DNA from: a virus | IMG/VR virus record: IMGVR_UViG_3300042888_002988 | Location: 62,001-126,000 of that record | DNA: 64,000 nt | Reading direction: 5' to 3' (one strand) | In this document: positions 35,502-53,376 of the stretch, piece by piece | Numbering within the stretch: the first letter of the stretch is position 1 | How the letters are laid out: the number at the start of each line of letters is the position of its first letter | Made by a program: the position numbers and the translations under genes | Notes under the pieces: generated by a model | The model's database searches: none | What the model was told of the DNA's origin: nothing | Seen by the model: only the letters and a program-made list of their open reading frames with translations

Positions 35502-37265
35502 ATGACCACGCCATTTGCCGCGCTCGCCGTAATGACGAAATCCGCTCACGCGTATTCAGTCGAACCTTCTCGCAACACTTCACCGGTGCTGCACCCGTTC
35601 GCTCAGCTGGATCCGTTCCTCAAGGAGGCGGGGTTCTTCGGCGACGTCACGGACGGTATTTGGAACAACACCATGAAGCCGCTTGGTAACGCCGTTGGGC
35701 AGATGGGTCAAGGCGTGGGACAGGTATTTGGAGGTATGTCGGAGGGTATCGGTAACACGCTGAAAGCTGCGCCTCGCGCGATTGGCGGAGCCCTTCAGGG
35801 CGGTATGAACGCATTCAAACAGCAGCTCACACAGCCGGGCGCCGTGAGCCTGGGATCGATCGGTCAGGGTATGATGGACGGCGGCTGGAATGCCGGCAAG
35901 CAGAGCCTTGGCTGGGCGGCTGACGGCGCGATGAAGAATATGCAGGGATTCGGTAACATCGCCGGCGGCGCAGCCAAGACAGCCTGGGGCGCGAATCCCC
36001 TGGTCATGGGCGGACGCGCAGCCTACGGCGCAGGTCAAGGCGTCATGAACGGCGTCCAGAACTTCGCGAACGATCTCAAAAGCCGTATGATGCCTCAAGG
36101 CGGCACCGCTCCAGGTGGTATACCATCTGGAATGCAGATGATTCCGCCAGGACAAACGGGTTCGATCATGCACGGCCCACCGGCACCTGGGACTCCCGCG
36201 AATCCTACTCCCGCGAATCCTACTCCTGCGCCGGGCACTGTCGCGCCCGGACAAAACAACCTGCAGAACAACATGCAGCCCGCGTCCGGTTTCGGTGGTA
36301 ACATCATGATGGGCGGCGGCGACAGCAATTCCGCCATGGGCGCAGGCTATGGTGGCGGCTTCAACCCCGGCGCGCCTCCCAACATGAGCGCCTCGGCCCC
36401 GCGTCCGGCCAATGGCTCGCCGAGCCCTGTCGGCAACGCGCCATCCTATCAGGGCCCGACTGCGGCCGACTACCAGCGGACGATGGGCAGCTACAATCCG
36501 AACTCACCATTCGACCAACGCAAGGCGCAGGCGATCGACGCAGCGTGGCAGCAGAACGGCGGGAGAATGTCCCCCAACCAGATGTATCAAGCTCCCGGCT
36601 ACATGGGCATCAGCAAGTCTGGCTCGCTGACTCCGTTTGCGATTTACGAACTCGACCCCGCGGCGAGCATGGAGAAAGCCGCCATGGCCGGCGGCATTGC
36701 CGGGTGGTTGCGGGGCGCTTTGCAACGCGGTGCCCAGGGTCTCAACCGTGGATCGCGGATGGCCAAAGCGACAGCCGGCCGCACGGCCAAGACTGAAGCA
36801 AACGCAGCGCAGAAGGTGCAAGCCGGTGCTACCTCGGTTGCTGGGGATCTCCCGAAGCTGCCTACCGGCCGCGAAGCTTTCCAGACGGCTTACGCCGGTG
36901 CCGGTAACGGCCGCCAAGGCCTCGCCGATTTCATGGGCAACGCCGGACTGCGCATCGACGCCTCCCCTGGCCTGCAGAAAGCCATCAACTACGGCGCACC
37001 CGCTGCGGCGGCCGGTGGCATCTTCTACGGCGGCAACCGGATGGGTCACAGCTCCGGCCTGGACGAGGGTCTCGACAAGGGCTTCGACACCGGAGCTGAC
37101 TATGGCATTCAGGCCGCGCTCGCCAACGCACCCAAAGACCCCGGCTTCTTCGGGCGCATCGCTGACGTGTTCACCGGCCAGCAGCAAGGTCCACAGGCCT
37201 ACGACATACAATCACTTCTGGACTCCAACAAGGCGCAGATCCTCAAACAACTCCGCGGCGCTTAA
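35502..37265 (+). CDS. Gly/Met/Pro-rich virion-region protein with the PFAxL tag
   Basis: The 587-residue protein starts MTTPFAALAVMTKSAHAYS, the first of several proteins sharing an N-terminal PFAxL motif. A second and third form occur inside (HPFAQLDPFLKEAGF; SLTPFAIYELDPAASMEKA). It is dominated by Gly-rich helical stretches, a Pro/Ala/Thr linker (NPTPANPTPAPG), and a C-terminal hydrophobic glycine zipper (APAAAAGGIFYGGNRMG) followed by GLDEGLDKGFDTGADYG. The composition suggests a membrane-active or injected virion protein. No enzymatic domain is seen. Confidence 0.6.
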   Translation: MTTPFAALAVMTKSAHAYSVEPSRNTSPVLHPFAQLDPFLKEAGFFGDVTDGIWNNTMKPLGNAVGQMGQGVGQVFGGMSEGIGNTLKAAPRAIGGALQGGMNAFKQQLTQPGAVSLGSIGQGMMDGGWNAGKQSLGWAADGAMKNMQGFGNIAGGAAKTAWGANPLVMGGRAAYGAGQGVMNGVQNFANDLKSRMMPQGGTAPGGIPSGMQMIPPGQTGSIMHGPPAPGTPANPTPANPTPAPGTVAPGQNNLQNNMQPASGFGGNIMMGGGDSNSAMGAGYGGGFNPGAPPNMSASAPRPANGSPSPVGNAPSYQGPTAADYQRTMGSYNPNSPFDQRKAQAIDAAWQQNGGRMSPNQMYQAPGYMGISKSGSLTPFAIYELDPAASMEKAAMAGGIAGWLRGALQRGAQGLNRGSRMAKATAGRTAKTEANAAQKVQAGATSVAGDLPKLPTGREAFQTAYAGAGNGRQGLADFMGNAGLRIDASPGLQKAINYGAPAAAAGGIFYGGNRMGHSSGLDEGLDKGFDTGADYGIQAALANAPKDPGFFGRIADVFTGQQQGPQAYDIQSLLDSNKAQILKQLRGA

Positions 37266-37277
37266 TCTGAAGATCGC

Positions 37278-38342
37278 ATGACTCCATTCGCCCAACTCGA
37301 ACATGGGGCGGGCCTATCCAAAGCCGCGTCACCCGGAACTATGCTGCGCGGCCTGCATAATCTGGTGCGCGGCGGTATCTGGAAGCACGTCGCCGAGAAG
37401 ACCGCGCCGTCCGGCCTGATGGGGCGCACGGCGCGCATGTTCCACAATCCAGTTACGGATAAGTCGACCCTGTTCAGCAACGCGCTGATGGGTTACGGCC
37501 TGACCGGTATGGGGGCACAGTTGGCCGGTTACGACATGCCTGGATCCAACCTCGCGCTCAACCTGGCTACCCCGGTGCTGGGTGCGTTATTCACCGCCCC
37601 GAGTCTCATCACTTCGATGAGGGCCGGAACCGACGCCAACAAGGCGCGGATGAAGGAGGACCTGATGTCTGGGGCACGTGGCGCTGGTAGTGATATGATC
37701 TCCCTGGGACAGATGGATCATCGCTTCCTGACTCAGCCTGGCCTGGCCCAGCAATACCTCCAGCAGAACGACCCTGACACCGCCAAGCTGGTGAACCAAT
37801 ACAGCACCGGGCAACACAAGCCGATGACCGGCCTGAAGCGGATGCAGTCCATGTTCGAGAATCCCCAGGATCTTATCAACAACCAAGTCGATCAGCACAT
37901 GCACAGTTTGATGCCTCAGTCGTCGCCGTTCGGTATGCACAAGGCCGGCGGTTTCGGGTCGGCGCTTAGGGCGGGATTCTCCCACGGGTTCCCGTGGTTG
38001 TTCCCAGCGCTGGGTGTGGGCATGCTAGGGCACTCCGTAATGAGCGACAAGCCATACGACGAGACCGCCATTCGCGCGCGCGGCTACGCTGGCGGGCAGG
38101 CCAAGATCCAGCAGGAGCTGGGCAACCTCAGCGGGATGGAACGCTTTGCGCTGCAGATGGATCCTTCGATGTTCGCCAACCGCCTAGAGGCTAAGCTGCC
38201 CGGCACCATTCAGAATTGGGAGCAGCAAACGGGACAGAAGCACCAGCCTGGTCTCATCAGCAATCTCGCGAGCGGTTGGAAGAAGGGTGGCGACACCGAA
38301 TACTACAGCTACGACGCCAAGGGCGGGCGAAAATACCTCTAA
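37278..38342 (+). CDS. Virion-region protein with the PFAxL tag
   Basis: This 354-residue protein begins MTPFAQLEHGAGLSKAASP. It has a hydrophobic Gly/Ala/Leu segment (NALMGYGLTGMGAQLAGYD; LATPVLGALFTAPSLITSM), a polar helical middle (NQVDQHMHSLMPQSSPFGM) and a second hydrophobic block (FPWLFPALGVGMLGHSVM). It probably interacts with membranes or with other tagged proteins. No family is recognised. Confidence 0.55.
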   Translation: MTPFAQLEHGAGLSKAASPGTMLRGLHNLVRGGIWKHVAEKTAPSGLMGRTARMFHNPVTDKSTLFSNALMGYGLTGMGAQLAGYDMPGSNLALNLATPVLGALFTAPSLITSMRAGTDANKARMKEDLMSGARGAGSDMISLGQMDHRFLTQPGLAQQYLQQNDPDTAKLVNQYSTGQHKPMTGLKRMQSMFENPQDLINNQVDQHMHSLMPQSSPFGMHKAGGFGSALRAGFSHGFPWLFPALGVGMLGHSVMSDKPYDETAIRARGYAGGQAKIQQELGNLSGMERFALQMDPSMFANRLEAKLPGTIQNWEQQTGQKHQPGLISNLASGWKKGGDTEYYSYDAKGGRKYL

Positions 38343-38349
38343 CATCACC

Positions 38350-39213
38350 ATGCACACACCATCACCATTCGCCTGCCTGGGGGACACCCCCATGGAGAAA
38401 AAAGCCTTCGGTTCGTTGTTGCGTGGGGCCACTAACATGGTCTCGCGCCACGCTGACGACGCCGGTAAAATGCTCGCCAATAAGCAGCTGGCCAGCACCC
38501 TGATGCCGAAGGGACAGGCGTTTGACGATGCGATTATGGCATCCCTCGGTCCTCAAGGTGTTCGGAACGCGCAGCCTGTAGCGAAGGTGCGCAGCGCTCT
38601 GGATGCGGCCAACATGCGCTATCCTGCCCTATCAAGCGGTAGCACCGGGGAGTTATTAAATGGCGCGCTGGCTCAGTATCGACGCGGCGGACAGCTGGCG
38701 CCGTATCGCCTATCGCGTTTTTCCGGTCCATACGCTCACCCACGTGGAGGCTTGGATCGCGCGAACGCCGCCGCATTCCAGCGCGCGCAGCGGGAATTAG
38801 CGCGTAAAGGCCCAACTCCTTCGTCGATGGAGGAGCTACAAAAACTTTTACAGGGCAATTCCCGCGCGGCGGGTGCGCAGATGCGCTCACAATTACCGCT
38901 CGCGAATGATGGCTTGAATCTACAGATGAAACGTGATTATCTGGCACGCTTAGCGCCTAACTCACCGGCGCGCCCACGCGCGCTTCAGGCGGCTCCTGAT
39001 AATGTGCCTATAACATATTCGAATGGTGCCGCCAAACCGGCCGCACCATCAGCCGCTCCGGCCGTCGCCACTCCTCCAGCCATGCCAGCAGCAGCGGCAC
39101 CGACCGCTGCAGCCCCTCCGCCGATGCCGGTCAATAACCCGTCTGGTATGGGTATGGCGGGCAGCGTTTTAGGCGGCTTAGGAGCTGGCTATCTCGGCGC
39201 TGAGTATCTCTAA
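38350..39213 (+). CDS. Virion-region protein with the PFAxL...EKxAF tag
   Basis: The 287-residue product from ATG 38350 begins MHTPSPFACLGDTPMEKKAF, nearly the same as the next gene's N-terminus. The body is Arg/Gln/Ala-rich (RRGGQLAPYRLSRF, AFQRAQRELARKGPT). The C-terminus is an Ala/Pro linker ending in a Gly-rich hydrophobic tail (GMAGSVLGGLGAGYLGAEY). An upstream ATG at 38287 lies inside the preceding gene and would read through its end, so it was rejected. Confidence 0.55.
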   Translation: MHTPSPFACLGDTPMEKKAFGSLLRGATNMVSRHADDAGKMLANKQLASTLMPKGQAFDDAIMASLGPQGVRNAQPVAKVRSALDAANMRYPALSSGSTGELLNGALAQYRRGGQLAPYRLSRFSGPYAHPRGGLDRANAAAFQRAQRELARKGPTPSSMEELQKLLQGNSRAAGAQMRSQLPLANDGLNLQMKRDYLARLAPNSPARPRALQAAPDNVPITYSNGAAKPAAPSAAPAVATPPAMPAAAAPTAAAPPPMPVNNPSGMGMAGSVLGGLGAGYLGAEYL

Positions 39214-39227
39214 CTAGACATCAAACA

Positions 39228-40532
39228 ATGCGCACACCACCGTCACCATTCGCTTGCCTCGGGCACACTGATATCGAAAAGCAAGCATTCGCGAAGCTAC
39301 TGAAAGGCCTCTCACAGCTCGTCGCCAAAGGTGGTCGAGGCACTGGTCGGGCATTGAAGGCGGCCCCCACCGGAGCCAAGAGTCCGCAGGAACTTGGGTT
39401 CCTCAAGGGTGAGCGCACGCACCCGTATCCTACCATGAGCGAGATGCCACCGCAGCGCTCACTGCCGTCGCAGCAAGGTAACGCCGTTCCGCTCGGTGGC
39501 GTCAACGGGCCGACGCCGAAATACGACCCCACGCGTCCTAAGATGACGGTGGAGGGTCAAGGTGGTGGTAACTATGTTGTCCTCGGTGGTGGCGGCCCTT
39601 CCAAAGGTTCGCCCACCCGTTACGGCCCTTTCGGTCCGACCGACATACGTTCCAAGTTGCACGCGGCCTCCACCGGCAAGAGTCCGCAGGAAATCGGTTT
39701 CCTCAAAGGCGAGCGCACGCATCCGTATCCGACCATGGCAGAAATGCCGCCGCAGCGTTCGATCGGCAAATCCGCCGCTGATCTCAAGGAAACCGCCAAG
39801 GAAACGCTGGGGGCTACTGCAGCCGCACCGCTCGGTATGTATGCCGGGGCGTTGGCTGCGCCACAGGCTGTTGGGCGGCTGCCTGCTTTCAAAAAGCTAC
39901 CACCACATTCGGCGCTGGGTGCTATTTTATTGAGCTTGATGTATGGGGGAGCGGCTGGCGGCGGTGTGGCGGCCAATGCCGGAGCCGAATTGCTTGGTTC
40001 CGAAAAGGGCGGCGTAGGCGCTAACGTCGGGGGCACGCTCGGCGGTGCTGCCGGTGGGGCTGCCGGCCTCCACGCGGGGGTTGCTATGCAGGATCTGCCC
40101 AAGTTGAAAAATCATTCCGGCAAGGCCATGCTGCTGGCAACACTTCTTGGTGGTGTCGGCGGTGCCATGGGCGGGCGCGAACTTGGTAAGATGGCAGCAG
40201 AGGAAGAAGCACCCAAGGAGCCCAAGGAAGCACCCAAACCGAAAGAAGGGGAAGTCGATGTCCGTCGTCAACGCGACGAGAAAGCGCTGCGCAACAGGCA
40301 CATCGCACTCTCGCTGAAGCGCGGCATGTCGGGCGGCATGCTCGGCGCAATCCTGGGCGGTCTCGGCGCGGCCGGGAACGAAGGTGGTATGACCGGCGGC
40401 CAAGGCGCGCTCGCGGGAGGTGCCGGCGGCGCGTTAGCTGGCGCGGGACTCGGTGCCGCTGAAGGTGGCGTGAAGAGACTGCTGGGGCTCGACCCGATCC
40501 TAGACACCACGCTGATCGCGCAGCGTGCGTGA
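39228..40532 (+). CDS. Virion-region protein with the PFAxL...EKxAF tag and an internal duplication
   Basis: The 434-residue protein opens MRTPPSPFACLGHTDIEKQA. A block of about 31 residues containing GFLKGERTHPYPTM and EMPPQRS occurs twice (about residues 46-78 and 146-178). The second half has long Gly/Ala-rich hydrophobic zippers (YGGAAGGGVAANAGAELLG; LGGAAGGAAGLHAGVAM; AILGGLGAAGNEGG) broken by an acidic/Lys/Pro hinge (EEEAPKEPKEAPKPKEGE). Such zippers are typical of membrane-inserting proteins. No enzymatic motif is seen. Confidence 0.6.
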   Translation: MRTPPSPFACLGHTDIEKQAFAKLLKGLSQLVAKGGRGTGRALKAAPTGAKSPQELGFLKGERTHPYPTMSEMPPQRSLPSQQGNAVPLGGVNGPTPKYDPTRPKMTVEGQGGGNYVVLGGGGPSKGSPTRYGPFGPTDIRSKLHAASTGKSPQEIGFLKGERTHPYPTMAEMPPQRSIGKSAADLKETAKETLGATAAAPLGMYAGALAAPQAVGRLPAFKKLPPHSALGAILLSLMYGGAAGGGVAANAGAELLGSEKGGVGANVGGTLGGAAGGAAGLHAGVAMQDLPKLKNHSGKAMLLATLLGGVGGAMGGRELGKMAAEEEAPKEPKEAPKPKEGEVDVRRQRDEKALRNRHIALSLKRGMSGGMLGAILGGLGAAGNEGGMTGGQGALAGGAGGALAGAGLGAAEGGVKRLLGLDPILDTTLIAQRA

Positions 40533-40578: not shown

Positions 40579-42816
40579 ATGAGCGTGGAAATCATCGACC
40601 CTAACTACCAGTGGAAGCAGGCCGCATCGCAAGAGGGCGTTGATTACGGCGCCGTGCAGAAGTCCTTCATGGACCAGAGCTACGCTGTCGTGGCCAACAA
40701 GGCCAAGATCCTGTTTCAAGATCCGTTCCGCCTCGGCTTCGAGATCGTTCACCGCAACGAGAAGGCCACGAAGATGGTCGGTATCTACGCCTTCCGTGTG
40801 AACGGCCAACTGCTGTATGCCCCGGTGTTCTTCGTCAACGGCGAGATCAAGGCCGCTGACATGCTCTACCGCGCGGACGTCAAACGCTTCGTGCCGCTCA
40901 CGGAAGACTGGTGCGCCTACTTGGTGCGCGGTGTCCACGAGAATGCCGGCGAGCCAATCGACCGCAACCGCTTCCGCCAGGCCGACGCCTACATGGACCG
41001 CCTCGCTTACCCGCAGCGCGTCAAGTATGCGAGCGAGGACGAAGAGAGAACCGCGATGCTCGCCGAGTTCCGCAAGGCTGCCGCCGACGGCAGCCTGTGG
41101 GCGGACATCATGCTGCACTGCGCAGACAACACTCCACTCCGCAAACTTCTGCCGCTGGTCATCAACGAGCACGGCCCCGAGGCGCTCGAGAAGGTCGCAG
41201 CGTTCGTCGAGAACAGCCCAACCGCAGCACGTTACCTCGCCACCCGCTATACCCGGGAGGAGCTGCAGACCGTGGACGGTTGGATGGCCAAGGAAGCTTC
41301 CGGCCCGCGCCCCGCCATTCAGATCATCACTTCGCCCACGCTGGCCAAGTCGGCCGCGTCACGTGAGCGCGTCTTCGACAAGGGCTATGACCTCGTGGAC
41401 AGCCGCCCTGCGGAATCCATCAACACGGTCATCGAGGAAGTCGGTGACGGCACCATCAAGGGGCTCTCCGCTCCGGGCAAGGTGCAAGTGCTCATGGGCG
41501 ACGGAGAGATGGTGGAAGCGTTGCTGCTTCGCCAGGATTCATCCTTGCTGCGCGAGAATGGGTATCCTACTGCGGATCCGGACATCCTCTGCAAGCCTGA
41601 ATACGTCTACTTCCCGAAGGACAAGCAGCTGCTCAAGCTCAACTACGACCAGGACATTTTCGGCGACGAAATGATCGACCAGGACACCAGCGCGAAGGCC
41701 GTCACCGCGGAGTCGCTTGCCAGCGGTAAGTGCTACGTCGCGCTCAACACGGAGCGTCTGACGATCTCCGATCCGTTCCGCGTCGACAAGTCCGAGGACG
41801 ATGGCGAATGTTCGGTCATCTCGATCACCACGCGCTACGGCGATACTGAGCAGCTCCTCTATGCGCCAGGTCGCGGCGAAACGGCCGGGAACTACATCAG
41901 CGACGAGACCTTCTTCCTAGAGGTCGAGTGCGATGTCGAAAACGGGGATAGCGGCGAAATCCGTAGCGTCAAGCCGACCTGCAACAAGGTCCTTATGACG
42001 TCCCGCACTATCGACCAATGGTTCCGCACCGCCGGTGGCTTGACTACGGCCCACGACGTGACCGTGAAGTCGAATGGCGTTTCGTTCGATGTCGAGCACC
42101 GCGAAAACGGAACGCTTCTCAAGGCTGCCCGCAATCTCGGCTGGCTCGAAACGCACTTGGCCCTCGCCGAGGACTTCTCTATCAGCACCGACAAAGCCGG
42201 CGAGATCCTCGACAAGGCCATCGATCGCGACGTGTCCTATCGCATCTACGACACCCTCAGTAAGAAGGCCTACATCACCCGGCCTGAGGGTATGCAGCAG
42301 TGGATCCAATCCTACGACCCCGAGCTGCAGGTGCAGATGGACGCGCCGCAGATTCAGACGCTGTCGACCCACACTCCTGAGCGTCCGCGCCAACAGCAGC
42401 GCTACGGCGATGTCTACAAGGGACCTCGTTCCGAGAACCGCAAGACTGCCGACGCGCTGATCCCGATGGACGCCATCATGAACCAGTCTCCAGAGGAGCT
42501 GGCGCAGATGTCCGACGCCTACGACCTGCCGCACATCTTCGACCACGGATGCGTGGGTCAGATGTCGACGAACAACTACAGCATCATCGAGCAGATCAAG
42601 CAGTATATCCCGGACCTCGAAGCAGGTGTTGACCGCCTCTTCCGAATCCTGTTCCTTCTGCGCTACCGCCCGGCGGACTTCGAAGAACTCTACGGCAAGG
42701 ATGACCTCGTGGCATTCGAGCAGGAGCTGGCCGATCTCGCCACCAGATCCGGAGACAACCTGCTGCGCATGCTGCAGCGTTTCGATCCGGATCAGTATGC
42801 GGCCCAGGAGAACTGA
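40579..42816 (+). CDS. Large hypothetical protein, probably structural
   Basis: The 745-residue soluble protein contains IIDPNYQWKQAASQEG and PFRLGFEIVHRN, then YAFRVNGQLLYAPVFFVNG, a pattern I vaguely recall from uncharacterised large-phage virion proteins. It has no membrane segment, is acidic, and mixes strands and helices throughout. The C-terminal 100 residues are helical (IIEQIKQYIPDLEAGVDRL). It heads a run of structural-type genes leading to the prohead protease. It was considered as a portal, but nothing supports that. Confidence 0.55.
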   Translation: MSVEIIDPNYQWKQAASQEGVDYGAVQKSFMDQSYAVVANKAKILFQDPFRLGFEIVHRNEKATKMVGIYAFRVNGQLLYAPVFFVNGEIKAADMLYRADVKRFVPLTEDWCAYLVRGVHENAGEPIDRNRFRQADAYMDRLAYPQRVKYASEDEERTAMLAEFRKAAADGSLWADIMLHCADNTPLRKLLPLVINEHGPEALEKVAAFVENSPTAARYLATRYTREELQTVDGWMAKEASGPRPAIQIITSPTLAKSAASRERVFDKGYDLVDSRPAESINTVIEEVGDGTIKGLSAPGKVQVLMGDGEMVEALLLRQDSSLLRENGYPTADPDILCKPEYVYFPKDKQLLKLNYDQDIFGDEMIDQDTSAKAVTAESLASGKCYVALNTERLTISDPFRVDKSEDDGECSVISITTRYGDTEQLLYAPGRGETAGNYISDETFFLEVECDVENGDSGEIRSVKPTCNKVLMTSRTIDQWFRTAGGLTTAHDVTVKSNGVSFDVEHRENGTLLKAARNLGWLETHLALAEDFSISTDKAGEILDKAIDRDVSYRIYDTLSKKAYITRPEGMQQWIQSYDPELQVQMDAPQIQTLSTHTPERPRQQQRYGDVYKGPRSENRKTADALIPMDAIMNQSPEELAQMSDAYDLPHIFDHGCVGQMSTNNYSIIEQIKQYIPDLEAGVDRLFRILFLLRYRPADFEELYGKDDLVAFEQELADLATRSGDNLLRMLQRFDPDQYAAQEN

Positions 42817-43816: not shown

Positions 43817-45418
43817 ATGACACATGATTCTGCTGTTCGGACTGTGGTTAGTCTCGTGCCCGAGATTGAAAAGCGTGGCGCGGCTGCTGTCCTGACCGAG
43901 TATGCTACTCGCGAAGACCTTCCGGCTGCGCAGCTTGAGAAGCTGGCCCAGGTTTATAACACCCTGCGCACGGTCAGTCATATCGATCACGCCCAACCTG
44001 ATGAGCGCGGCGCCACCGTGCCGCTGCTGGACGTGCCTACGCTCGTCGTCGGCTACGCCACGGGGCTCGACCAGGAGAAGGTCGCCGCCGGCCCGCATTC
44101 GTTTTCCTCGCACGACCCGCGCACCGTGGATCTCAACCTCGCCCTGAAGCGTGACATGGGACTGCGGAAGGCTGCCGCCCAGGCCACCGGGACGCCCGAC
44201 ACGGTCAATCAGCTGCTCAAACAGGCGGTGAGCCACGAGCAAGCAGCTGCCGCGCTACTGGAGGTCGAGCTCGACCTCCAGGACGAAATGTCCAAGCTCG
44301 CCGGTGAGCTGTTCTCGGCCGCGCCTCGCGTCGGTGCTGAACACTTCCGCCGCGACATCTCCGAGTTCGAAGAGGAAGCGCTGCAGTATCAGCCCGCCAG
44401 CATCGTGAAAGCGGCCGGCGACTTCATGGAAAAATTTGCCGCACCTCACCGCACGAAGCTCGTGCGCTTCGACTACAATCAGCCGGTGCAGGCGTATGCC
44501 TACGACATCGGCCACCAGAACGGCCAGAAGATGGCTGACCTGGCCAAGGCAGCCAGCACGCTGGAGATTATCAAGATGGCTGCGAAGACCATCGAAGAAG
44601 TCCGCGGCGCTGGCGCTTCGCCAGATGATCGGGCACACGTGGAACCATCAGCCACGCCTACCGCGGTGAATGGCACGACCGCCACGCTGTCACCCGATAT
44701 CATGGCCGCAATGTTCGGCGGCGCACAACCCGCTGCTCCCCCGGACATCGTGAAGAAGGACAACGACGAGGACGCTCCCACTGAGGACGAGCAACTCGGC
44801 AAAGCCGAGGGTGTGGTATCCGGGACACCCGAGAAGCCCCAGCCCGGCGGGAAGGCTCCTACCAACGACCTTCCCCTTGACAGGGAAACTACCAAGGACA
44901 CTAAAACCAGCGGTGGTGACGAAGGTAAGAAATCCGATGCCGCATCCATCACCCGCGATGAGATCCTCGCCATGTTTGCCGCTCCTCTGACTGCCGGTCG
45001 CGACGCCATCCAGGGCGCGGCTCGCAAGGCTGATGAAACCCTCGGCGCTATCGTCGGTAAGGAGCGCACGAACAAAGCGCAGATGTCTTCCGACCTGTCC
45101 GTCGAGGACATTCGCCGCGCGATGAACGTGCGCCGTCTGATCGGCACGGATCCCGTGCTGCGCGAGGCCGATCCCAAGGAAGTGCTTGAGGTCTACAATT
45201 CCGTCGTGGCCCGCAACCCGCAGCTCGCCGGTGACATGGCGGCCCTGCGGCTCGTCCTGCGGGAGGCTGTCAGCTACGAGGGCCTCACTCTGGATTCCCA
45301 GAAGCTCCTCACCGAGATTCGCCGCAATTCTGAGGAGGCCGACAAGACCTTCAGCGAAAACGAACGCCGCCGCTATGCAGTGGGCGGAACCACTCCTCTA
45401 CCGATCGCCAAAGTATGA
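43817..45418 (+). CDS. Hypothetical structural-region protein
   Basis: The 533-residue product starts at the ATG directly after a leaderless-type promoter. It has a helical N-terminal half (AAAALLEVELDLQDEMSKL, KMADLAKAASTLEIIKMAA), a long acidic Pro/Lys-rich linker (about residues 275-365) and a helical C-terminal domain (SVEDIRRAMNVRRLIGTDP). KAAG and KAAS motifs occur. It precedes the membrane and protease genes. No family is recognised. Confidence 0.55.
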   Translation: MTHDSAVRTVVSLVPEIEKRGAAAVLTEYATREDLPAAQLEKLAQVYNTLRTVSHIDHAQPDERGATVPLLDVPTLVVGYATGLDQEKVAAGPHSFSSHDPRTVDLNLALKRDMGLRKAAAQATGTPDTVNQLLKQAVSHEQAAAALLEVELDLQDEMSKLAGELFSAAPRVGAEHFRRDISEFEEEALQYQPASIVKAAGDFMEKFAAPHRTKLVRFDYNQPVQAYAYDIGHQNGQKMADLAKAASTLEIIKMAAKTIEEVRGAGASPDDRAHVEPSATPTAVNGTTATLSPDIMAAMFGGAQPAAPPDIVKKDNDEDAPTEDEQLGKAEGVVSGTPEKPQPGGKAPTNDLPLDRETTKDTKTSGGDEGKKSDAASITRDEILAMFAAPLTAGRDAIQGAARKADETLGAIVGKERTNKAQMSSDLSVEDIRRAMNVRRLIGTDPVLREADPKEVLEVYNSVVARNPQLAGDMAALRLVLREAVSYEGLTLDSQKLLTEIRRNSEEADKTFSENERRRYAVGGTTPLPIAKV

Positions 45419-46254: not shown

Positions 46255-47697
46255 ATGGAAAAATCATTTGCCACTGACGACCACGACCAGCTGCTGGCAG
46301 CAGCAGACGGTCACGCGTTCACATTCTTCGAACGCCCCTATGGGCGTGGCTCATTCACCAAGTCTGCGTCGGATGTCATCTCGAAGTTGGACCTGCAGAA
46401 CCACATGCCGCCCGACACCCACTTCGGCGTGCATCTCATTTCCATGGGGTCCGAGGAAGACTACGGTGCCAATCGCAACGGTGACTCTGCCTCGCGCCGT
46501 TCGCTGCAAGAATACCACCCCACCTTCGAGAAGTTTGGGAACGTGTTCCGTGAGCACAACAACAAAGATCCCCGCAAGCGCTGTGGCGACGTCAAGCTGG
46601 CTCGCTACAACCCGCGCATGCACCGAGGAGAGCTCATCGTATGGGTCGACAAGGACAAGGCGCCCGACATGTATAAAAAGGCCAAGGCCGGCGAAGAGCT
46701 GTCGTGGTCCATGTCAATGCGCCTGCCGCATGACGAATGCTCGTGCTGCCGCAAGAAGAGCAAGCGCACCACCGAGTATTGCAGCCACCTTCGCAACAAC
46801 ATGCTGCAGTTCGTGCCTGGGTTTGAAAAGTATGCCTATGCCAGGAACGAAGAAGGTGTGAAGTTTTTCGACATCAGCGAGGTGAAGCGCCGCGCGGATC
46901 GGATCGCCACATACCTGGGTTACACTTTCAGTCCGGGCGACATGGCCAAGGCCGCGTCCTCCAGCACCATCATCACCGGCGCGCAGTGGGCCGAGCATCA
47001 GTTCGGCGTATCGCGTGCTGTGCCATTCGACGCGTGGGAAGATCTCACGCTCGACAAGCTGGCCGCCGCCGAGGAGTTTGTTCGGAACGCCGATGCCAAT
47101 ACGCTCACCACGCTCTATAAGATGGCCCCGCGCGATCTTACCCGCGAGCAGATCGAAACGCTGGCCGGCCCCGACTTCCGCAACGTCGGCGGTGAGCTTG
47201 CCAAGAAGGCGATGATTATCAACTTCATGACGTTCGCGTCGATGGTCACTAACCGCTCGATCGAGGAGCTGCAGAAGGACGCCGCGCTATGCGATGCGAT
47301 GGATGAGAAAATGCCATCGCTACTCTCTGATATGGCTCGCGACGGCGGCTCCGCATGCGGCGAGGAAGTCGCTGATTCGGTGTCACCCGATGAAGTCGGC
47401 TGCTCGTTCTCGCCAGGCAAGGACAACATCGATCGCCTCATGCAAGAGGTCGGTGACGAATGCGGTATGAAACCTGAGGATGCATCCAACCGTGCGCTAA
47501 GCGTGACCATCATGAAGACCGCCGGCCTGCGCCGCTCGGGTAAACTAACCGAGGTCGACGCCTACTACAGCGGTCTGATCGCCGCATACGGACACTACGT
47601 CGTCAAGGCTGCTCACCAGATCAAGGATTTACCCGGTATCTCCGCCAACACATTGTTCCGCGGCCTGGCCGCCAGTCTTTCAGTATCCCTACGATAA
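46255..47697 (+). CDS. Prohead core protease
   Basis: The 480-residue protein matches the herpes-assemblin-like prohead protease group that cleaves scaffold and capsid propeptides: GANRNGDSASRRSLQEYHP, then FREHNNKDP with a likely catalytic His101, LARYNPRMHRGELIVWVDK, and LSWSMSMRLPHDECSCC with the candidate nucleophile among Ser150-Ser154. A CxxC/CSH metal-like cluster (ECSCC...YCSHL) follows, as in many relatives. It sits immediately upstream of the scaffold-like gene and the major capsid protein, the expected order. The C-terminal half is helical and may be an added scaffold domain. Confidence 0.75.
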   Translation: MEKSFATDDHDQLLAAADGHAFTFFERPYGRGSFTKSASDVISKLDLQNHMPPDTHFGVHLISMGSEEDYGANRNGDSASRRSLQEYHPTFEKFGNVFREHNNKDPRKRCGDVKLARYNPRMHRGELIVWVDKDKAPDMYKKAKAGEELSWSMSMRLPHDECSCCRKKSKRTTEYCSHLRNNMLQFVPGFEKYAYARNEEGVKFFDISEVKRRADRIATYLGYTFSPGDMAKAASSSTIITGAQWAEHQFGVSRAVPFDAWEDLTLDKLAAAEEFVRNADANTLTTLYKMAPRDLTREQIETLAGPDFRNVGGELAKKAMIINFMTFASMVTNRSIEELQKDAALCDAMDEKMPSLLSDMARDGGSACGEEVADSVSPDEVGCSFSPGKDNIDRLMQEVGDECGMKPEDASNRALSVTIMKTAGLRRSGKLTEVDAYYSGLIAAYGHYVVKAAHQIKDLPGISANTLFRGLAASLSVSLR

Positions 47698-47786: not shown

Positions 47787-48926
47787 ATGGCCGAACAACA
47801 ACACAAAGTGGCTGCGGCGATTCGCCAATACGCGGAAAAGCTCGCATCCGAAAAAGCAGCCGCCGGCGAAGGCGCACCAGACCGCTTGACTGTCGCTGAT
47901 GGTCAGGGTGGTATCACAACCTCCAAGGGAACCGTTCCAAAAGATGTCGGCCAGTCCGAGCTTGAAGTTCGCCAGCCCAAGGATGGGACCGCAGTCCAAA
48001 CCTCCAGCGCGAACGCCAGCGGCGGTGAGCGTATGACGGTGGCCGACGGTCAAGGCGGCATCACTGCCTCCAAGGGGAGCGTCCCCGCCGATCCGGGACA
48101 AGCGGAACTCGAAGTCAATCAACCCACCGACGGTTCCGTCGTGAAGGGTGCAACCATTTCCAAGCGGGCTGCCAGCATTCGCGCTGCGCTGATCAACGCC
48201 AACCCTGCGCTGGCCGAGAAGTTCGCGCCCGCCTCTCAGTCGTCCGCCGCTCCCGCAGTGAAGACGGCTGGTAACAACCAGGCTGCGGCTTCCGCTCCCA
48301 ACATTCAACTGAGCAGTGATACGCTGTGCAAGATTGCTCGAGCCATTCTCTCCTCCGACGAAGGTGTGCGTTTCGCGCACGACATGCTGGAGAAGCAAGC
48401 CGGCGAAGAAGCTGCACGCAATCAGATCATGGAGGCCATTCAGGCTTCACAGGTCTACGACGAGAGCGAGCATGTCAAACAAGCCGCTTTCAACGATCTC
48501 GGCAACAAGGCCGTGACCATTCACAACTCGCTCCTGCAAGCTGGCGTGACCGAAGACGATGCGGACTCGATCCTCAAGCAGGCTTCCGTCATCCAGGAGA
48601 AGCTCGCCGGCTACGAGCACCCGCTGCTCAAGGCTGCGTTCGCTCAAGGCATGGACGATGCCTCCCTCATGGCTGCCGCTGACGAAGCTGGCGGCGAAGA
48701 AGGTGCTCCTCCGATGGACGAAGCTCTCCCGATGGGCGGTGAGCAACTCGGCGAAGAAGAGATCATGGCGCTGCTTGAAGAGATGCTCGCCTCCGGTCAA
48801 ATCACCGAGGAAGACATCAAGACCGCAATCGGAGCCGCTGGCGGAGCCGGAGCCGAAGGAGGCATGCCTCCTGAAGGTGGCGGCGCGCCGCCCGAAGAAG
48901 CAGCCATGGCAGCCGCCGGAGCCTGA
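47787..48926 (+). CDS. Probable capsid scaffolding protein
   Basis: This 379-residue, acidic, helix-rich protein lies between the protease and the capsid genes, where scaffolds are encoded. The N-terminal part has a duplicated block of about 36 residues (LTVADGQGGITTSKGTVP and MTVADGQGGITASKGSVP). The centre is helical (LCKIARAILSSDEGVRFAH), and the C-terminus is a Gly/Glu/Met/Pro-rich tail (GGMPPEGGGAPPEEAAMAA). Low aromatic content fits a protein that is removed by proteolysis. The role is inferred mainly from position and composition. Confidence 0.6.
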   Translation: MAEQQHKVAAAIRQYAEKLASEKAAAGEGAPDRLTVADGQGGITTSKGTVPKDVGQSELEVRQPKDGTAVQTSSANASGGERMTVADGQGGITASKGSVPADPGQAELEVNQPTDGSVVKGATISKRAASIRAALINANPALAEKFAPASQSSAAPAVKTAGNNQAAASAPNIQLSSDTLCKIARAILSSDEGVRFAHDMLEKQAGEEAARNQIMEAIQASQVYDESEHVKQAAFNDLGNKAVTIHNSLLQAGVTEDDADSILKQASVIQEKLAGYEHPLLKAAFAQGMDDASLMAAADEAGGEEGAPPMDEALPMGGEQLGEEEIMALLEEMLASGQITEEDIKTAIGAAGGAGAEGGMPPEGGGAPPEEAAMAAAGA

Positions 48927-48958: not shown

Positions 48959-49372
48959 ATGAACAAAGCAGCCTTCAGCGCAATGCTCGGTGTGATCGAT
49001 GATGCCATCGATCTCGCGGACTCCGCTGTCAAGTCCGCGGAGTTGGCGCAAAGCCGAGACGCCGAGCCAGTCACACTGGTGAAGGTCGCCGCGGAGCGCT
49101 ACCAGTCCGCTGCTGCTGAGCTCATGAAAACTGGCGCATTCCGAGACTACTCCCGGGATAGCCTCGCAAAATCTCTCGAGTCGGCCGGCCCTGCTGGTCT
49201 GCTCGGGTTTCTGGAGAAGCTGGCCTCCAGGGCTGTGTTTCCGCTCGATGTCGATTTCGGCAGCGATGGGGACCTAGTCGATAAGTCAGCCACCAACCGG
49301 ATGGATGCCCGTCCCGCTGAAAACAAGACCGACCTTTGGGAACGGTGTTGCCAAGAAGCGGGACTAAGCTGA
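48959..49372 (+). CDS. Small head-region protein
   Basis: The 137-residue protein is Ala-rich and helical in its first two thirds (MLGVIDDAIDLADSAVKSA; LLGFLEKLASRAVFPLD) with an acidic/polar end (DFGSDGDLVDKSATNRMD). It lies between the scaffold and decoration-like genes. No family is recognised; an internal scaffold or capsid accessory is possible. Confidence 0.5.
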   Translation: MNKAAFSAMLGVIDDAIDLADSAVKSAELAQSRDAEPVTLVKVAAERYQSAAAELMKTGAFRDYSRDSLAKSLESAGPAGLLGFLEKLASRAVFPLDVDFGSDGDLVDKSATNRMDARPAENKTDLWERCCQEAGLS

Positions 49373-49414
49373 AATGCCGGATCCGAACATACACACACCT
49401 GAAATAACAACAAT

Positions 49415-49996
49415 ATGCAATACGCACTGAATCGTCGAATCGCTCGCGCTCGCGTTCCAATGCAGGTCCTCCGTGGATTCAACCCCACCGAGCCCGGCAA
49501 GTTGTCGTTACTCGCTGCACCTATCGACGGTCAAGCGATCCAGTCAGGGATGGTGATTGTAAGAGGCACTGGCACTGTAAACGGAAAGGCATCCCAACAG
49601 GGATGGCTGAAGGCACAGGCCGCAGACTCCATTGGCGCTACTGGCGCTAACGAGGTCATCTCTTACTTCCTCGCCCTCCATGACCAGGATTCGCACGACG
49701 TCCAGGCAAGCGGCGGACTCGTTGGGCTTGATTGCTCCGACGATTACGAAGTCCAAACTGGCTACTTTGTCAAGTCTGGGTCATACGTCTTCAACTCCCC
49801 GCTTACCTGCGGAGCTGATGGCCAAGTGACTCTCGCGACGGTAACGAACGCCAACATCCTCGGATATGTGACTCGTGTCGGAAGCGGCGCTAACGGTCAG
49901 ATCCCGTATGTTGGGAAAACGCCGCCAACAGCTAACGCTGCTGACGCTGAAGTTCTCCAGTTCAAAACCTCCCGTAGCGGTCAGCGCAAGGCATAA
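49415..49996 (+). CDS. Probable capsid decoration/stabilisation protein
   Basis: This 193-residue, beta-rich protein directly precedes the major capsid gene. It has strands with Gly/Thr turns (GMVIVRGTGTVNG, YEVQTGYFVKSGSYVF, LGYVTRVGSGANGQIPYVG) and few charges, a composition like phage head decoration proteins, which are often encoded beside the capsid gene. The start is the ATG after an A/C-rich leader (ACACACACCTGAAATAACAA). Confidence 0.55.
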   Translation: MQYALNRRIARARVPMQVLRGFNPTEPGKLSLLAAPIDGQAIQSGMVIVRGTGTVNGKASQQGWLKAQAADSIGATGANEVISYFLALHDQDSHDVQASGGLVGLDCSDDYEVQTGYFVKSGSYVFNSPLTCGADGQVTLATVTNANILGYVTRVGSGANGQIPYVGKTPPTANAADAEVLQFKTSRSGQRKA

Positions 49997-50033
49997 CCTG
50001 AGCTCCTAACCAATAACCAAGAAAGAACCAGTT

Positions 50034-51017
50034 ATGTCTGACCAAAACGCAAAAGACCTGCTCATCAAGAAGCAACTCATCGACGATATCCTCGATTCCG
50101 AGGACGGCGTCGTGAAGCGCGCTTCTGCCGCCACCTCGAAAGCTACTCGGACTCAAATCCGGGAAGAAGGCTTTCAGCGTGCGATCATGTCGTTCGATAT
50201 GATCACCAACGAGGAACTCGATTACTTCGGTGATTCTGAGCTCCCCGGTGTGTGGTTCGAACTCGAGCCTGACTCGCCGCCGGCCCGTATCATCCCCTAC
50301 AATGACACCCCGAACACCTTCGCGTATCGCGCGGAGAAATACGTGGTTCTCATTTCGGTGATTACGACCGAGGAAGCGACGAAGAACGTCAACCATCTCC
50401 GTACTTACAAGACGGACATCCGCCAGATCGTCAACGACAACATGTTGCGTGACATCCACACCGCAGAAGATACCGCGTTCCTCGCGGAGGTCGACCGCCT
50501 CGTGGGTTCACCAGTCGCCTACGGCACTGTTGAAGCTGCGATCGTCGCCGGGGGCACCGGCGCTCAGAACGTGACTATGGGTACTGCTACCTTTAGTCGC
50601 GCCAACCTGAAGCGTGCCGTTAGCTACCTCATCGAGCGTCAGCTGCCAGTCGGTGTGTTCCTCGTGAACCAACGGACTGCCAACGAGTTCCTCGGCTGGG
50701 ATCGTAACGAGATGGGTGGTGATCTGTCCCAAGAGGTGGCTCGCAAGGGCCTCAAAGCTCTTGAGACGTTCGAGATGTTCGGTATCCCGTTCATCAGCAC
50801 CATCAAGAACAACCTCGTCGCCAACGGTGTGATGTACCAATTCGCTCCGCGTGAGTTCCTCGGAAACGCGCTGATGCTTGAGGACATCACTGTGACGATC
50901 AAGAAGGAGTATGACATCATCCGTATGCGTGCCCAGGAGCAAGTCGGTCTCACGATCGGCAACCCCCTCGGTCTGCAGAAGCTGAACTACACCATGTCCA
51001 GCGTCACTGGCGCCTGA
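50034..51017 (+). CDS. Major capsid protein
   Basis: The 327-residue protein is assigned from position (after protease, scaffold and decoration genes; before neck and sheath genes), size and fold pattern: a charged N-terminal arm (LLIKKQLIDDILDSEDGVV), an E-loop-like strand region, the helix KTDIRQIVNDNMLRDIHTAE (residues 127-146), P-domain-like strands (FLVNQRTANEFLGWD), and a C-terminal VTIKKEYDIIRMRAQEQ strand-helix typical of HK97-fold capsids. Part of it (128-150) is echoed in the Tat-signal protein at 12932. A strong terminator follows, as for a highly expressed gene. The leader contains CCAATAACCAAGAAAGAACC. Confidence 0.75.
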   Translation: MSDQNAKDLLIKKQLIDDILDSEDGVVKRASAATSKATRTQIREEGFQRAIMSFDMITNEELDYFGDSELPGVWFELEPDSPPARIIPYNDTPNTFAYRAEKYVVLISVITTEEATKNVNHLRTYKTDIRQIVNDNMLRDIHTAEDTAFLAEVDRLVGSPVAYGTVEAAIVAGGTGAQNVTMGTATFSRANLKRAVSYLIERQLPVGVFLVNQRTANEFLGWDRNEMGGDLSQEVARKGLKALETFEMFGIPFISTIKNNLVANGVMYQFAPREFLGNALMLEDITVTIKKEYDIIRMRAQEQVGLTIGNPLGLQKLNYTMSSVTGA

Positions 51018-51045
51018 TCCTTCTAGCCCTTAACAAGGCCTTCTG

Positions 51046-51075
51046 GCGCCGGTGGGAAACCACCGGCGCTTTTTT
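51046..51075 (+). terminator. Strong terminator after the major capsid gene
   Basis: A perfect 10-bp stem (GCGCCGGTGG at 51046-51055, CCACCGGCGC at 51060-51069) with a stable GAAA loop is followed by six T residues. Confidence 0.9.
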
Positions 51076-51192
51076 GTTGCCGATCCGCGGCGTCTCCGTA
51101 TCTTGCTGCGGGGTTCGCCGCAAGCGGTCCAGGAGGGCGAGGAACACCTTCCCAGTCCGGCCAGTGCAAGCTGGTGCTTATCCAATGCTCCA

Positions 51193-51227
51193 CGAAAGGC
51201 GTCGACTTCACGGTCCGACGCCTTTCG
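51193..51227 (+). repeat. Perfect 12-bp inverted repeat upstream of a promoter
   Basis: CGAAAGGCGTCG (51193-51204) and CGACGCCTTTCG (51216-51227) enclose 11 bases and end 2 bases before TTGCCA. It could be a second terminator read in either direction, or an operator. It lies in the 248-base gap 51018-51265. Confidence 0.6.
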
Positions 51228-51229
51228 CG

Positions 51230-51258
51230 TTGCCAGCCGCGGGTTTTCATTGTAGCAT
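51230..51258 (+). promoter_or_regulatory. Sigma70-like promoter, leaderless type, for the gene at 51266
   Basis: TTGCCA (51230-51235), 17 bases, TAGCAT (51253-51258), then ACGAACC and ATG 51266. Confidence 0.65.
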
Positions 51259-51265
51259 ACGAACC

Positions 51266-52327
51266 ATGAGCGAGCCGATGACTCAACAGTTTGTAACCGC
51301 ATTCCTAACCACCTGCTTCGACGCAGGCCTGAGCAAGGAAGCCGCCGCTGAACTCCTGCAGAAGGAGTCTGTCGACGTAGAGCTTCGTCGACGCCCAGCG
51401 TTCGCAGAAGGTTATCTGAAACAGGCATCAATGTTCCCGGGTCAGCTATGCCCCGCGCTGCGTGTCCGTTCCGCCCGCTCCGAGATGGAGAAGGCAGCTT
51501 TGCTGAAGGGGCTCGGCCGCGCTGGTAAGGCGCTGCTGTGGGATGCTCCTGCTGGTATCGCTCAGTCGCTCTTCGGAGCGGGAAAAGGCGTAGCTAAAGG
51601 CGTGGGGCGCACCTTTGGCCCACAGAAAGCCTCGCTCTTGGAGCGCTATCCGTTCACCGTCGGTATGGCGGGCATGGCCGGCGTCGGGGCCGGCACTTAC
51701 GGCCTGACGAAGTGGCTCAACCAGGACAACGGTCTGGGTGCCAATAGCAATGATCCATTCCTCCCACCAGGCGGCTACAGCAAGGCGCAATACGACGCCA
51801 TGTATGAGAACCGCCTCAAGGAACACGAGCCTGGTATCTTCTCCACCAACAAGGAATATGACTCTAGCGCTGGCCGTATCGCTGAGCTGCAGAAAGAGAT
51901 CGAGGAAGGTCGCGGCGGTAGTAACGCCTATCAGGAACTTCAACAACTGGAGCGCCGCCGTGGCAGCCTCGGCGGTGCCCGCTCGGACTACACCGAGCAA
52001 CTGGACATGAACCAGGATTCGAGCCGCGACCTCATGTCCCGGATCGCCAACCGCACTGCGGATCTTGAGAATCAGCGCACCGCTTGGTGGGCCGCGCCGA
52101 AGCGTTGGCTGATGCAGGCCCGCGGTGGCGATCTGTTCGACTCCAGCATCTCACAACGCCACTTCGACCGTCAGATCGGCGGTCTGCAGGACAACTCGGC
52201 GCGCGCCAGGATGCAAGAGCGTCTGGCTGCGGATCGGGCCAAGCTCGTACGCGGCGGTGCCACCGGGCGTTCCGCGCCTCAGCGCACCCAGGAACAGCTC
52301 ACCACGGATTTCTTCCCCGCCTACTAA
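51266..52327 (+). CDS. Hypothetical head-neck region protein
   Basis: The 353-residue product (start set by the promoter) begins with a helical domain (TQQFVTAFLTTCFDAGLSK, EAAAELLQKESVDVELRRR). A Gly/Ala segment follows (FTVGMAGMAGVGAGTYGLT), then a charged coiled-coil-like region (RIAELQKEIEEGRGGSNAY, YQELQQLERRRGSLGGARS). It starts the operon of neck genes. No family is recognised; a virion structural role is inferred from position. Confidence 0.5.
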   Translation: MSEPMTQQFVTAFLTTCFDAGLSKEAAAELLQKESVDVELRRRPAFAEGYLKQASMFPGQLCPALRVRSARSEMEKAALLKGLGRAGKALLWDAPAGIAQSLFGAGKGVAKGVGRTFGPQKASLLERYPFTVGMAGMAGVGAGTYGLTKWLNQDNGLGANSNDPFLPPGGYSKAQYDAMYENRLKEHEPGIFSTNKEYDSSAGRIAELQKEIEEGRGGSNAYQELQQLERRRGSLGGARSDYTEQLDMNQDSSRDLMSRIANRTADLENQRTAWWAAPKRWLMQARGGDLFDSSISQRHFDRQIGGLQDNSARARMQERLAADRAKLVRGGATGRSAPQRTQEQLTTDFFPAY

Positions 52328-52333
52328 TCAGCC

Positions 52334-52756
52334 ATGTCCGACGTCATCACCATTGCTGATGTCCGCGAGGACATGCTTGATCGCCAAGCTGAAGACCATT
52401 TGGTCCTGACCGACCTAGCGTTCACTGACCCGGACATCGAGTGGGCCATGAAGGCATGCATGCGCAAATTCAACGGGATCAGACCGATCGGTATCAACAT
52501 CTCGTGGGATGCGATGCCGAGCAACACGTCGGTGTTCTTCGACGGCGTCGCTTGGGCGCTGTGCCGCCGCTGGCACCGCAACGTCAGCATGAACGACTAC
52601 GACTACTCGGCCGGCGGTGTGACAGCCAACGTGCAGGGATCACTGCTGAAGAACCTGGAGCGCCTGCGCGACAAGTTGGAGCAGGAGTTCGTCGAGGCCG
52701 CCACCAATTTGAAGGTATCTGCTAACCTTGATGATGCATGGGGGGTAATAGGATGA
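52334..52756 (+). CDS. Putative head-tail connector (neck) protein
   Basis: The 140-residue helical protein lies just after the capsid gene group, where the head-completion/adaptor protein is usual. It has VREDMLDRQAEDHLVLTDL, FTDPDIEWAMKACMRKFNG and LLKNLERLRDKLEQEFVEA, a helix bundle compatible with gp6-type connectors. The assignment rests on size, helicity and position rather than a diagnostic motif. Confidence 0.45.
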   Translation: MSDVITIADVREDMLDRQAEDHLVLTDLAFTDPDIEWAMKACMRKFNGIRPIGINISWDAMPSNTSVFFDGVAWALCRRWHRNVSMNDYDYSAGGVTANVQGSLLKNLERLRDKLEQEFVEAATNLKVSANLDDAWGVIG

Positions 52757-53376
52757 CACCGTTCGCACGACTGGAACCAATGATGCTGAAGAGGGCCGGA
52801 ACGCAGCCCTTCCCGTTCGCTCCGCAATACATGCCGGGGCGAGTTCCGCAACCGATGCCAGACCCTGGGCAAGCGCCGGCCGCGCCTGATGAAGGCGGTT
52901 GGGGCTGGAAAGACACCGGCGGCCTGGCGCTGGATATCGCAGCCGGATCCAACCCGTTCACCGGCGTCCCATACTACGGCTACAAGGCGTTCAACGATTT
53001 CAAGGACGGGAACATCTGGTCCGGGCTCGGCAACGTCGCCTGGGGCGCGGCGTCCTTCTTGCCCGGCGCCGGATCTGCAGCCAAAGGCATCGTAGGCGGT
53101 ATCTCTCGTGGTGCCGCGAAAATGACCCCAGGTTTCGTCAAGTCTATGCAGACTGGCGGTAAGCTGTCGGCTGGTATGACCAAGGGTATTGGCACTGGAA
53201 GCTTGGTCGGCGGCCTGGGCGCAACGGGGATGGGTATGTATACCGGCGAAGGCATGCCGCAGCAACCCCAGCAACAGCCGATGATGCCGCAGCAGATGCC
53301 GCAGCAACAGCAGCCATTCAACTTCATCGACCACTCGATCAACACCATCCGCGGCACGCAGGGTGCAGCACCATAA
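52753..53376 (+). CDS. Gly/Gln-rich protein with the PFAxL tag
   Basis: The 207-residue protein starts MTPFARLEPMMLKRAGTQP, the same N-terminal pattern as four proteins encoded at 35-40 kb. It has a Gly/Ala hydrophobic zipper (LVGGLGATGMGMYTGEG), a Gln/Pro/Met-rich stretch (PQQPQQQPMMPQQMPQQQQ) and FNFIDHSINTIRGTQ at the end. The start overlaps the upstream gene by 4 bases. It probably belongs to the same functional set as the other tagged proteins. Confidence 0.55.
   Translation: MTPFARLEPMMLKRAGTQPFPFAPQYMPGRVPQPMPDPGQAPAAPDEGGWGWKDTGGLALDIAAGSNPFTGVPYYGYKAFNDFKDGNIWSGLGNVAWGAASFLPGAGSAAKGIVGGISRGAAKMTPGFVKSMQTGGKLSAGMTKGIGTGSLVGGLGATGMGMYTGEGMPQQPQQQPMMPQQMPQQQQPFNFIDHSINTIRGTQGAAP

What the first reader, a model, noticed from the sequence alone, without database searches (positions are those of the whole stretch)
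35502..53376. Shared N-terminal PFAxL...(E)KxA tag on several virion-region proteins
MTTPFAAL, MTPFAQLE...SKAA, MHTPSPFACLG...EKKAF, MRTPPSPFACLG...EKQAF and MTPFARLE...LKRA begin five otherwise dissimilar proteins (35502, 37278, 38350, 39228, 52753), and the motif recurs inside 35502. A common N-terminal peptide on unrelated bodies suggests a packaging, docking or protease-processing signal that sorts internal proteins into the head. A prohead protease is encoded at 46255.
Basis: partly seen in the sequence, partly recalled or inferred. Interest (0 to 1): 0.68.

Follow-up and report, generated by a model that had tools for sequence, protein, structure and literature searches.

The report
Shared N-terminal phage head-protein tags
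Five unrelated proteins in the head-gene cluster of an uncultured large phage begin with the same short peptide, which ends in what looks like the cutting site of the phage's own capsid protease; this points to an address-and-cut label for sorting proteins into the virus head, and similar labels occur across a wide group of little-studied phages.

Summary
All seven PFAx[L/Y] boxes in the 200-kb phage lie in five head-cluster proteins: five at N-termini, two inside the 35502 protein (shuffles give 0.07 proteins with an N-terminal box). Bodies are unrelated and wobble codons vary. Every box (15 of 15 across four related phages) is followed 6-14 residues later by K-x-A with a hydrophobic residue two before K.

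That second element, phi-x-K-x-A, is the key. It is 5.7-fold enriched in the head module; elsewhere K-x-A is at expectation. It is invariant in 25 of 25 major capsid proteins. It sits at a fixed place before the protease domain in 28 of 29 homologous proteases and is 2-6-fold enriched around the protease gene in about 60 viral contigs. The same blind scan on phage T4 recovers its known gp21 sites (I/L-x-E).

[quoted passage not shown] Cleavage is inferred, not shown; targeting by PFAxL rests on analogy. Relatives carry other tag 'dialects' (MNKYLEKIA, MKYFEKxA). Novelty: new variant of a known kind.

The parts
35502..37265 (+). Tagged protein 1 (587 aa, Gly-rich 17%); three PFAx[L/Y]...KxA copies, aa 4-15, 32-43 and 378-394; predicted to be cut into pieces
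   Evidence: homologs in G001 and G003 keep copies at the N-terminus and mid-protein
35511..35546 (+). Tag copy 1a PFAALAVMTKSA
35595..35630 (+). Tag copy 1b PFAQLDPFLKEA
36633..36683 (+). Tag copy 1c (internal) PFAIYELDPAASMEKAA, at the junction between a P/G-rich region and the conserved C-terminal part
37278..38342 (+). Tagged protein 2 (354 aa), MTPFAQLEHGAGLSKAAS; box residues F4 A5 Q6 L7 and K15 invariant in 3 phages
38350..39213 (+). Tagged protein 3 (287 aa), MHTPSPFACLGDTPMEKKAF
39228..40532 (+). Tagged protein 4 (434 aa, Gly-rich 19%), MRTPPSPFACLGHTDIEKQAF
52753..53376 (+). Tagged protein 5 (207 aa), MTPFARLEPMMLKRA; homolog in G001/G002 MTPTPFALLDPMVKAA
46255..47697 (+). Prohead (head maturation) protease, 480 aa; phi-x-K-x-A at aa 36, 232 and 421 in the three low-confidence linkers of the model
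   Evidence: PHROG 18299 E 2.3e-8; fold top hits HSV-1 protease and T4 gp21, weak E
46360..46368 (+). KSA, proposed N-terminal autoprocessing site of the protease
46948..46956 (+). KAA at aa 232, proposed release site after the protease domain; K and A each 26/31 conserved
50034..51017 (+). Major capsid protein, HK97 fold; N-terminal helix 3-21, low-confidence linker 22-43 holding VVKRAS
50115..50123 (+). K28-R-A30 of the capsid protein, invariant in 25/25 homologs; proposed maturation cut
47787..48926 (+). Scaffold-like protein, 14 KxA against 3.75 expected
43817..45418 (+). Core/scaffold-like protein, 8 phi-x-K-x-A against 1.0 expected (counted from crude start 43856)
40579..42816 (+). Conserved head-cluster protein, 6 phi-x-K-x-A against 0.9 expected; counterpart by gene order of Arash gp218 (annotated structural)
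48959..49372 (+). Small head-cluster protein MNKAAFSAML..., 4 phi-x-K-x-A against 0.35
51266..52327 (+). Head-cluster protein with N-terminal GLSKEAA and internal EMEKAALLKG

Best explanation
The shared N-terminus is a capsid-targeting sequence with a built-in cut site. A phi-x-K-x-A element (phi = L/M/F/I/V, often followed by S, A or E) is the recognition and cleavage site of the phage's assemblin-type prohead protease at 46255. The PFAxL box 6-14 residues upstream of the K is the part that recruits the protein into the scaffold core of the prohead. After assembly the protease removes its own N-terminal pro-segment, trims the capsid protein after K28-R-A30, shreds the scaffold-like proteins at their many sites, and clips the tags off the five cargo proteins, leaving them inside the head, probably as ejection or internal proteins. 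In the 35502 protein three tag copies imply cutting into pieces. Shown by sequence: the two-part motif, its restriction to head genes, its coupling and its fixed positions. Inferred: cleavage, the exact bond (after A), targeting by PFAxL, presence in the virion.
For: Blind scan of 1600 spaced residue pairs: KxA is first in the head module (70 vs 34.3) and near expectation elsewhere (238 vs 228, rank 464); phi-x-K-x-A 45 vs 7.9, z 13, next best pattern z 3.4. Positive control: the same scan on T4 core genes ranks IxE 1st and LxE 6th, the known gp21 sites, with no phi-x-K-x-A excess, 6 vs 4.5 (T4 motif from PMC9026906). In SPN3US propeptides it finds E-S first and A-x-x-S fourth, parts of the known AxE site with its P1' serine preference (PMC10052503). 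About 60 viral loci with the protease show a 2-6-fold phi-x-K-x-A excess, with the site enriched in the first 45 residues. K28 and A30 invariant in 25/25 capsid proteins, most at 21-33% identity. KxA 33-40 residues before NRNGD in 28/29 proteases, shuffle mean 1.3, maximum 6. The sites sit in low-confidence linkers next to folded domains. In Arash, proteins annotated structural have 67 sites vs 31 expected, others 38 vs 41. PFAxL is coupled to phi-x-K-x-A in 15/15 copies. Unrelated bodies share other tags in relatives.
Against: No mass spectrometry or N-terminal sequencing exists for this phage or, in the papers searched, for its relatives. Several phi-x-K-x-A matches in the protease fall in confidently folded helices, so not every match can be a site. 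The Foldseek match to HSV-1 protease and T4 gp21 is first-ranked but not significant by E-value (0.07-0.2), and Pfam has no match. Phage G, which has a protease homolog, has an apparently uncleaved capsid protein without the motif. In one 37278 homolog the site reads K-S-S instead of K-x-A. The Arash N-terminal association is modest (9/57 vs 10/183, p 0.02). PFAxL-specific targeting has no direct evidence.
Confidence: 0.74

Rival explanations
1. The tag is a docking peptide that binds scaffold, capsid or protease and is not cut; phi-x-K-x-A is a short helical binding motif used throughout the head.
For: Motif repeats many times in scaffold-like proteins and sits beside an N-terminal helix in the capsid model; some matches lie in predicted helices.
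Against: Pro-segment to domain boundary position in proteases; S/A/E preference after the A; the same blind scan picks out true cut sites in T4.
Confidence: 0.14
2. The five proteins are diverged paralogs; the N-terminus is only the best-preserved remnant of duplication and has no special role.
For: 38350 and 39228 have nearly the same first 20 residues; several bodies are Gly-rich.
Against: No body similarity by BLASTP; box repeated inside one protein and kept at the same places in G001/G003 homologs at 38% identity; wobble codons vary; convergent tags of other sequence on unrelated bodies in relatives.
Confidence: 0.06
3. The tag directs proteins elsewhere (membrane, a phage compartment, or the tail) rather than into the head.
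For: No virion localisation data exist; one tagged gene (52753) lies past the capsid gene, near the presumed tail genes.
Against: Its second half is shared with capsid protein, protease and scaffold-like proteins; genes lie in the head cluster.
Confidence: 0.06

Closest known systems
T4 capsid-targeting sequence (CTS) of IPI/IPII/IPIII/Alt, cut by gp21
   Same: Short N-terminal peptide shared by dissimilar proteins; targeting residues upstream, processing residues at the end; protease also cuts capsid, scaffold and itself (PMC9026906)
   Different: No sequence similarity; site here is phi-x-K-x-A instead of L/I-x-E; copies also inside a protein; spacer of variable length
P1 DarB N-terminal packaging signal
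   Same: First 30 residues are sufficient to send a reporter into the head (PMC9024508)
   Different: P1 capsid cut is after E120 (E|S); no shared multi-protein PFAxL-type tag known to me
SPN3US/phiKZ head propeptides cut by gp245 at AxE
   Same: N-terminal propeptides on head and ejection proteins; two ejection proteins share the same N-terminus (PMC5694885)
   Different: Most propeptides are 100-250 residues; different cut motif
Herpesvirus assemblin (HSV-1, HCMV protease)
   Same: Top fold match of the protease model; known A|S cleavage (own knowledge) resembles A|[S/A]; sites flank the protease domain
   Different: Fold match not significant by E-value; upstream residues differ (K at the third position before the cut)
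Salmonella phage Arash / Vibrio phage D69 head module
   Same: Homologous protease and capsid protein with the same KxA positions
   Different: No PFAxL tag found in Arash head proteins; site not yet reported there in the papers searched

Membership tests
Phage capsid-targeting sequence (T4/P1 type) | Short N-terminal peptide common to several otherwise dissimilar proteins | tested here: met
   5 proteins, bodies unrelated; other tags on 4-6 proteins in L045, L055, L069
Phage capsid-targeting sequence (T4/P1 type) | Peptide ends in the recognition motif of the phage's prohead protease | tested here: inconclusive
   15/15 boxes followed by phi-x-K-x-A; that this is the protease motif is inferred
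Phage capsid-targeting sequence (T4/P1 type) | Carrier proteins are inside the mature head | not testable with these tools
   Genes lie in the head cluster; no virion proteomics
Phage capsid-targeting sequence (T4/P1 type) | Peptide is sufficient to target a foreign protein to the head | not testable with these tools
   Needs a reporter experiment
Phage capsid-targeting sequence (T4/P1 type) | Peptide is removed by the protease during maturation | not testable with these tools
   Needs N-terminal mass spectrometry
Prohead protease / herpes assemblin fold (46255) | Profile match to a head maturation protease family | tested here: met
   PHROG 18299, E 2.3e-8; no Pfam or NCBIfam match
Prohead protease / herpes assemblin fold (46255) | Assemblin-like fold | tested here: inconclusive
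   Foldseek ranks HSV-1 protease 1st, T4 gp21 3rd-5th, HCMV protease 17th; probability 0.80-0.87 for HSV-1 and gp21 but E 0.07-0.2
Prohead protease / herpes assemblin fold (46255) | Catalytic Ser and His | tested here: inconclusive
   S152 and H101 invariant, H88 nearly so, in 31 homologs; not assigned structurally
Prohead protease / herpes assemblin fold (46255) | Gene next to scaffold and capsid genes | tested here: met
   46255 protease, 47787 scaffold-like, 50034 capsid protein; same order in Arash, and a capsid gene follows the protease within the fetched flank in many of the viral contigs

The most novel reading that the evidence does not exclude
A large, little-characterised group of phages uses one protease code (phi-x-K-x-A) together with lineage-specific N-terminal address boxes (PFAxL, NKYLEK, MKYFEK, MDKAxxVFxK). 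New genes are recruited as head cargo by gaining the local box at their 5' end, and in the 35502 protein tagged cargo is fused into a polyprotein that is separated inside the head.
Probability: 0.4. Interest if true: 0.78.

Novelty: new variant of a known kind. Interest (0 to 1): 0.62.

Why it matters
Only T4 and P1 have experimentally defined capsid-targeting sequences among the papers found here. If this holds, the cargo and protease substrates of hundreds of uncultured large phages could be read from sequence alone by looking for phi-x-K-x-A, which gives many 'hypothetical' head proteins a role. It would supply new short tags for loading proteins into phage heads. It also offers a general trick: a blind enrichment scan of head genes can reveal a phage's maturation-protease specificity, as it does for T4.

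Tried and rejected
Chance or composition: rejected by shuffles. DNA-level element: rejected because wobble codons differ. Transmembrane signal: tagged proteins have no strong hydrophobic segment by Kyte-Doolittle. RNA element or tRNA: no Rfam or tRNA hit in the window. Homologs of the 39228 protein in viral contigs: none found. Capsid homologs by close search gave only three contigs; the protease alignment opened the wider group. Literature for a K-x-A cleavage motif, phage Arash, and phage G or mycobacteriophage capsid processing: nothing usable. A solved capsid structure of the KxA type: none; only phage G gp27, whose chain starts at residue 1 and lacks the motif. In SPN3US the scan recovered only part of the AxE|S site. 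Family scans of the five tagged proteins gave only sub-threshold matches: one weak tail-tape-measure hit for 35502 (E 3.6e-4) and one below-cut-off NCBIfam hit for 37278.
Full report
What was checked. The window is bases 62001-126000 of a 200,158-bp virus record. In 218 predicted proteins there are seven PFAx[LY] matches, all in the five head-cluster proteins. Five lie within 20 residues of a start, against a shuffle mean of 0.07 and maximum 2. Codons differ at wobble positions, so selection acts on the peptide. The bodies share no significant BLASTP similarity.

The tag has two parts. Every PFA box in this phage and three relatives (G001-G003, capsid protein 82-84% identical), 15 of 15, is followed by K-x-A with K 6-14 residues after the P, and the residue two before K is always L, M, I or F. 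In the genome the chance of such a neighbour is 2.1% per position. In one 35502 homolog the second PFA box is lost but its K-x-A is kept, and in one 37278 homolog the box reads TAFAQL with K-S-S.

The K-x-A part is a head-wide code. A blind scan of all residue pairs at spacings 1-4 in the head module put KxA first (70 vs 34.3 expected). With a hydrophobic residue two before K the count is 45 vs 7.9 (z 13; the next best pattern z 3.4). In the rest of the genome KxA is at expectation, 238 vs 228; with the hydrophobic residue it is 83 vs 58 there, an excess that comes largely from a few proteins that may themselves be head proteins. The densest proteins are the protease 46255, 43856, scaffold-like 47787, 40579 and 48959. 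The same scan applied to T4 head-core genes ranks I-x-E first and L-x-E sixth, which are the published gp21 sites, and gives no phi-x-K-x-A excess (PMC9026906). On SPN3US propeptides it finds E-S first and A-x-x-S fourth, fragments of the published AxE site with its P1' serine preference (PMC10052503). So the method can recover a true maturation-protease motif.

Fixed positions in distant homologs. The window capsid protein is HK97-fold (Foldseek E 1.6e-9). In 25 capsid homologs, most at 21-33% identity, K28 and A30 are invariant, in a low-confidence linker (22-43) between an N-terminal helix and the HK97 fold. The protease matches PHROG 18299, head maturation protease. Its model is most like HSV-1 protease and T4 gp21, but with weak E-values. 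In 28 of 29 homologous proteases a K-x-A lies 33-40 residues before the NRNGD motif (shuffle mean 1.3, maximum 6), even though the pro-segment itself is variable. In the model residues 1-37 are low-confidence and the fold starts just after, and the K-x-A at 232 and 421 lie in the two other low-confidence linkers. Eight further K-x-A matches lie in confidently folded parts, so the motif alone is not sufficient.

Spread. Protease homologs occur in 217 candidate viral stretches, of which 79 loci were fetched. Around them phi-x-K-x-A is 2-6-fold over expectation in about 60 distinct loci and KxA is often the top pair. The sites are about twice as dense in the first 45 residues, and the residue after A is enriched for S (3-fold), E (2.3-fold) and A (1.6-fold). 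In Salmonella phage Arash, whose record labels 57 proteins structural or head/tail, these have 67 sites vs 31 expected and other proteins 38 vs 41; N-terminal sites are in 9/57 vs 10/183. How Arash's labels were made is not stated in the record. Homologs of the protease also occur in Bacillus phage G and cluster C mycobacteriophages.

Other tag dialects. In relatives, different N-terminal peptides ending in the same code are shared by unrelated neighbours: (S)NKYLEK[IV]A on 4-6 proteins in L045, L055 and L069, and MKYFEKxA on 4-5 proteins in L058 and L089, where some pairs are related. M[DN]KAxxVFxKxA recurs across L037, L049 and L074. This argues that the window's PFAxL tag is one local version of a wider theme.

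Mechanism. By analogy with the T4 CTS, in which upstream residues target and the last residues are for processing (PMC9026906), and with the P1 DarB signal, where 30 residues suffice (PMC9024508), the PFAxL box most likely recruits cargo to the scaffold and phi-x-K-x-A is cut by the 46255 protease, with A at P1. Shown: motif anatomy, restriction, coupling, position. Inferred: cutting, the exact bond, targeting, virion location, and the polyprotein nature of 35502.

Verdict. It belongs to a known kind (capsid-targeting sequence plus prohead protease), but with an apparently undescribed protease code and tag set in a broad, poorly studied phage group; 'undescribed' is limited to the open-access papers searched here.

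Noticed in passing
window 33606-35447 and 10671-10856; L003 10663-11682: Split multisubunit RNA polymerase: beta' C-terminal part (Rpb1_5), a weak beta' N-terminal match, and beta (Rpb2_6, E 2e-48) far apart in the genome. In Arash the beta subunit starts MPKSASEL, a possible head tag.
   Followed up: partly
window 46255-47697 (aa 162-178): The protease carries a conserved CSxC...C-x-H set (C162, C165, C176 invariant in 31 homologs), a possible zinc-binding insert near the proposed catalytic serine.
   Followed up: no
window 15477-18272: 931-aa protein starting MLHKQAAF (N-terminal phi-x-K-x-A), with 7 such sites and a C-terminal InPase polyvalent domain (PF18823, E 1.6e-39) that also matches DarB-like and minor-head PHROGs; likely another head cargo protein.
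   Followed up: partly
L008 9869-10879 (genome 154669-155682); L003 3126-4598: Two proteins far from the head cluster that are dense in phi-x-K-x-A (7 vs 0.85 and 6 vs 0.92); possible further protease substrates.
   Followed up: no
window 4766-6118: Divergent adenylosuccinate synthetase-like protein (PF00709, E 2.6e-29; below PurA and PurZ cut-offs), possibly linked to modified bases.
   Followed up: partly
L058 5084, 6931, 7177; L089 5521, 7283: Tagged proteins in relatives that also share related bodies, hinting that tags may spread by duplication of whole genes as well as 5' ends.
   Followed up: no
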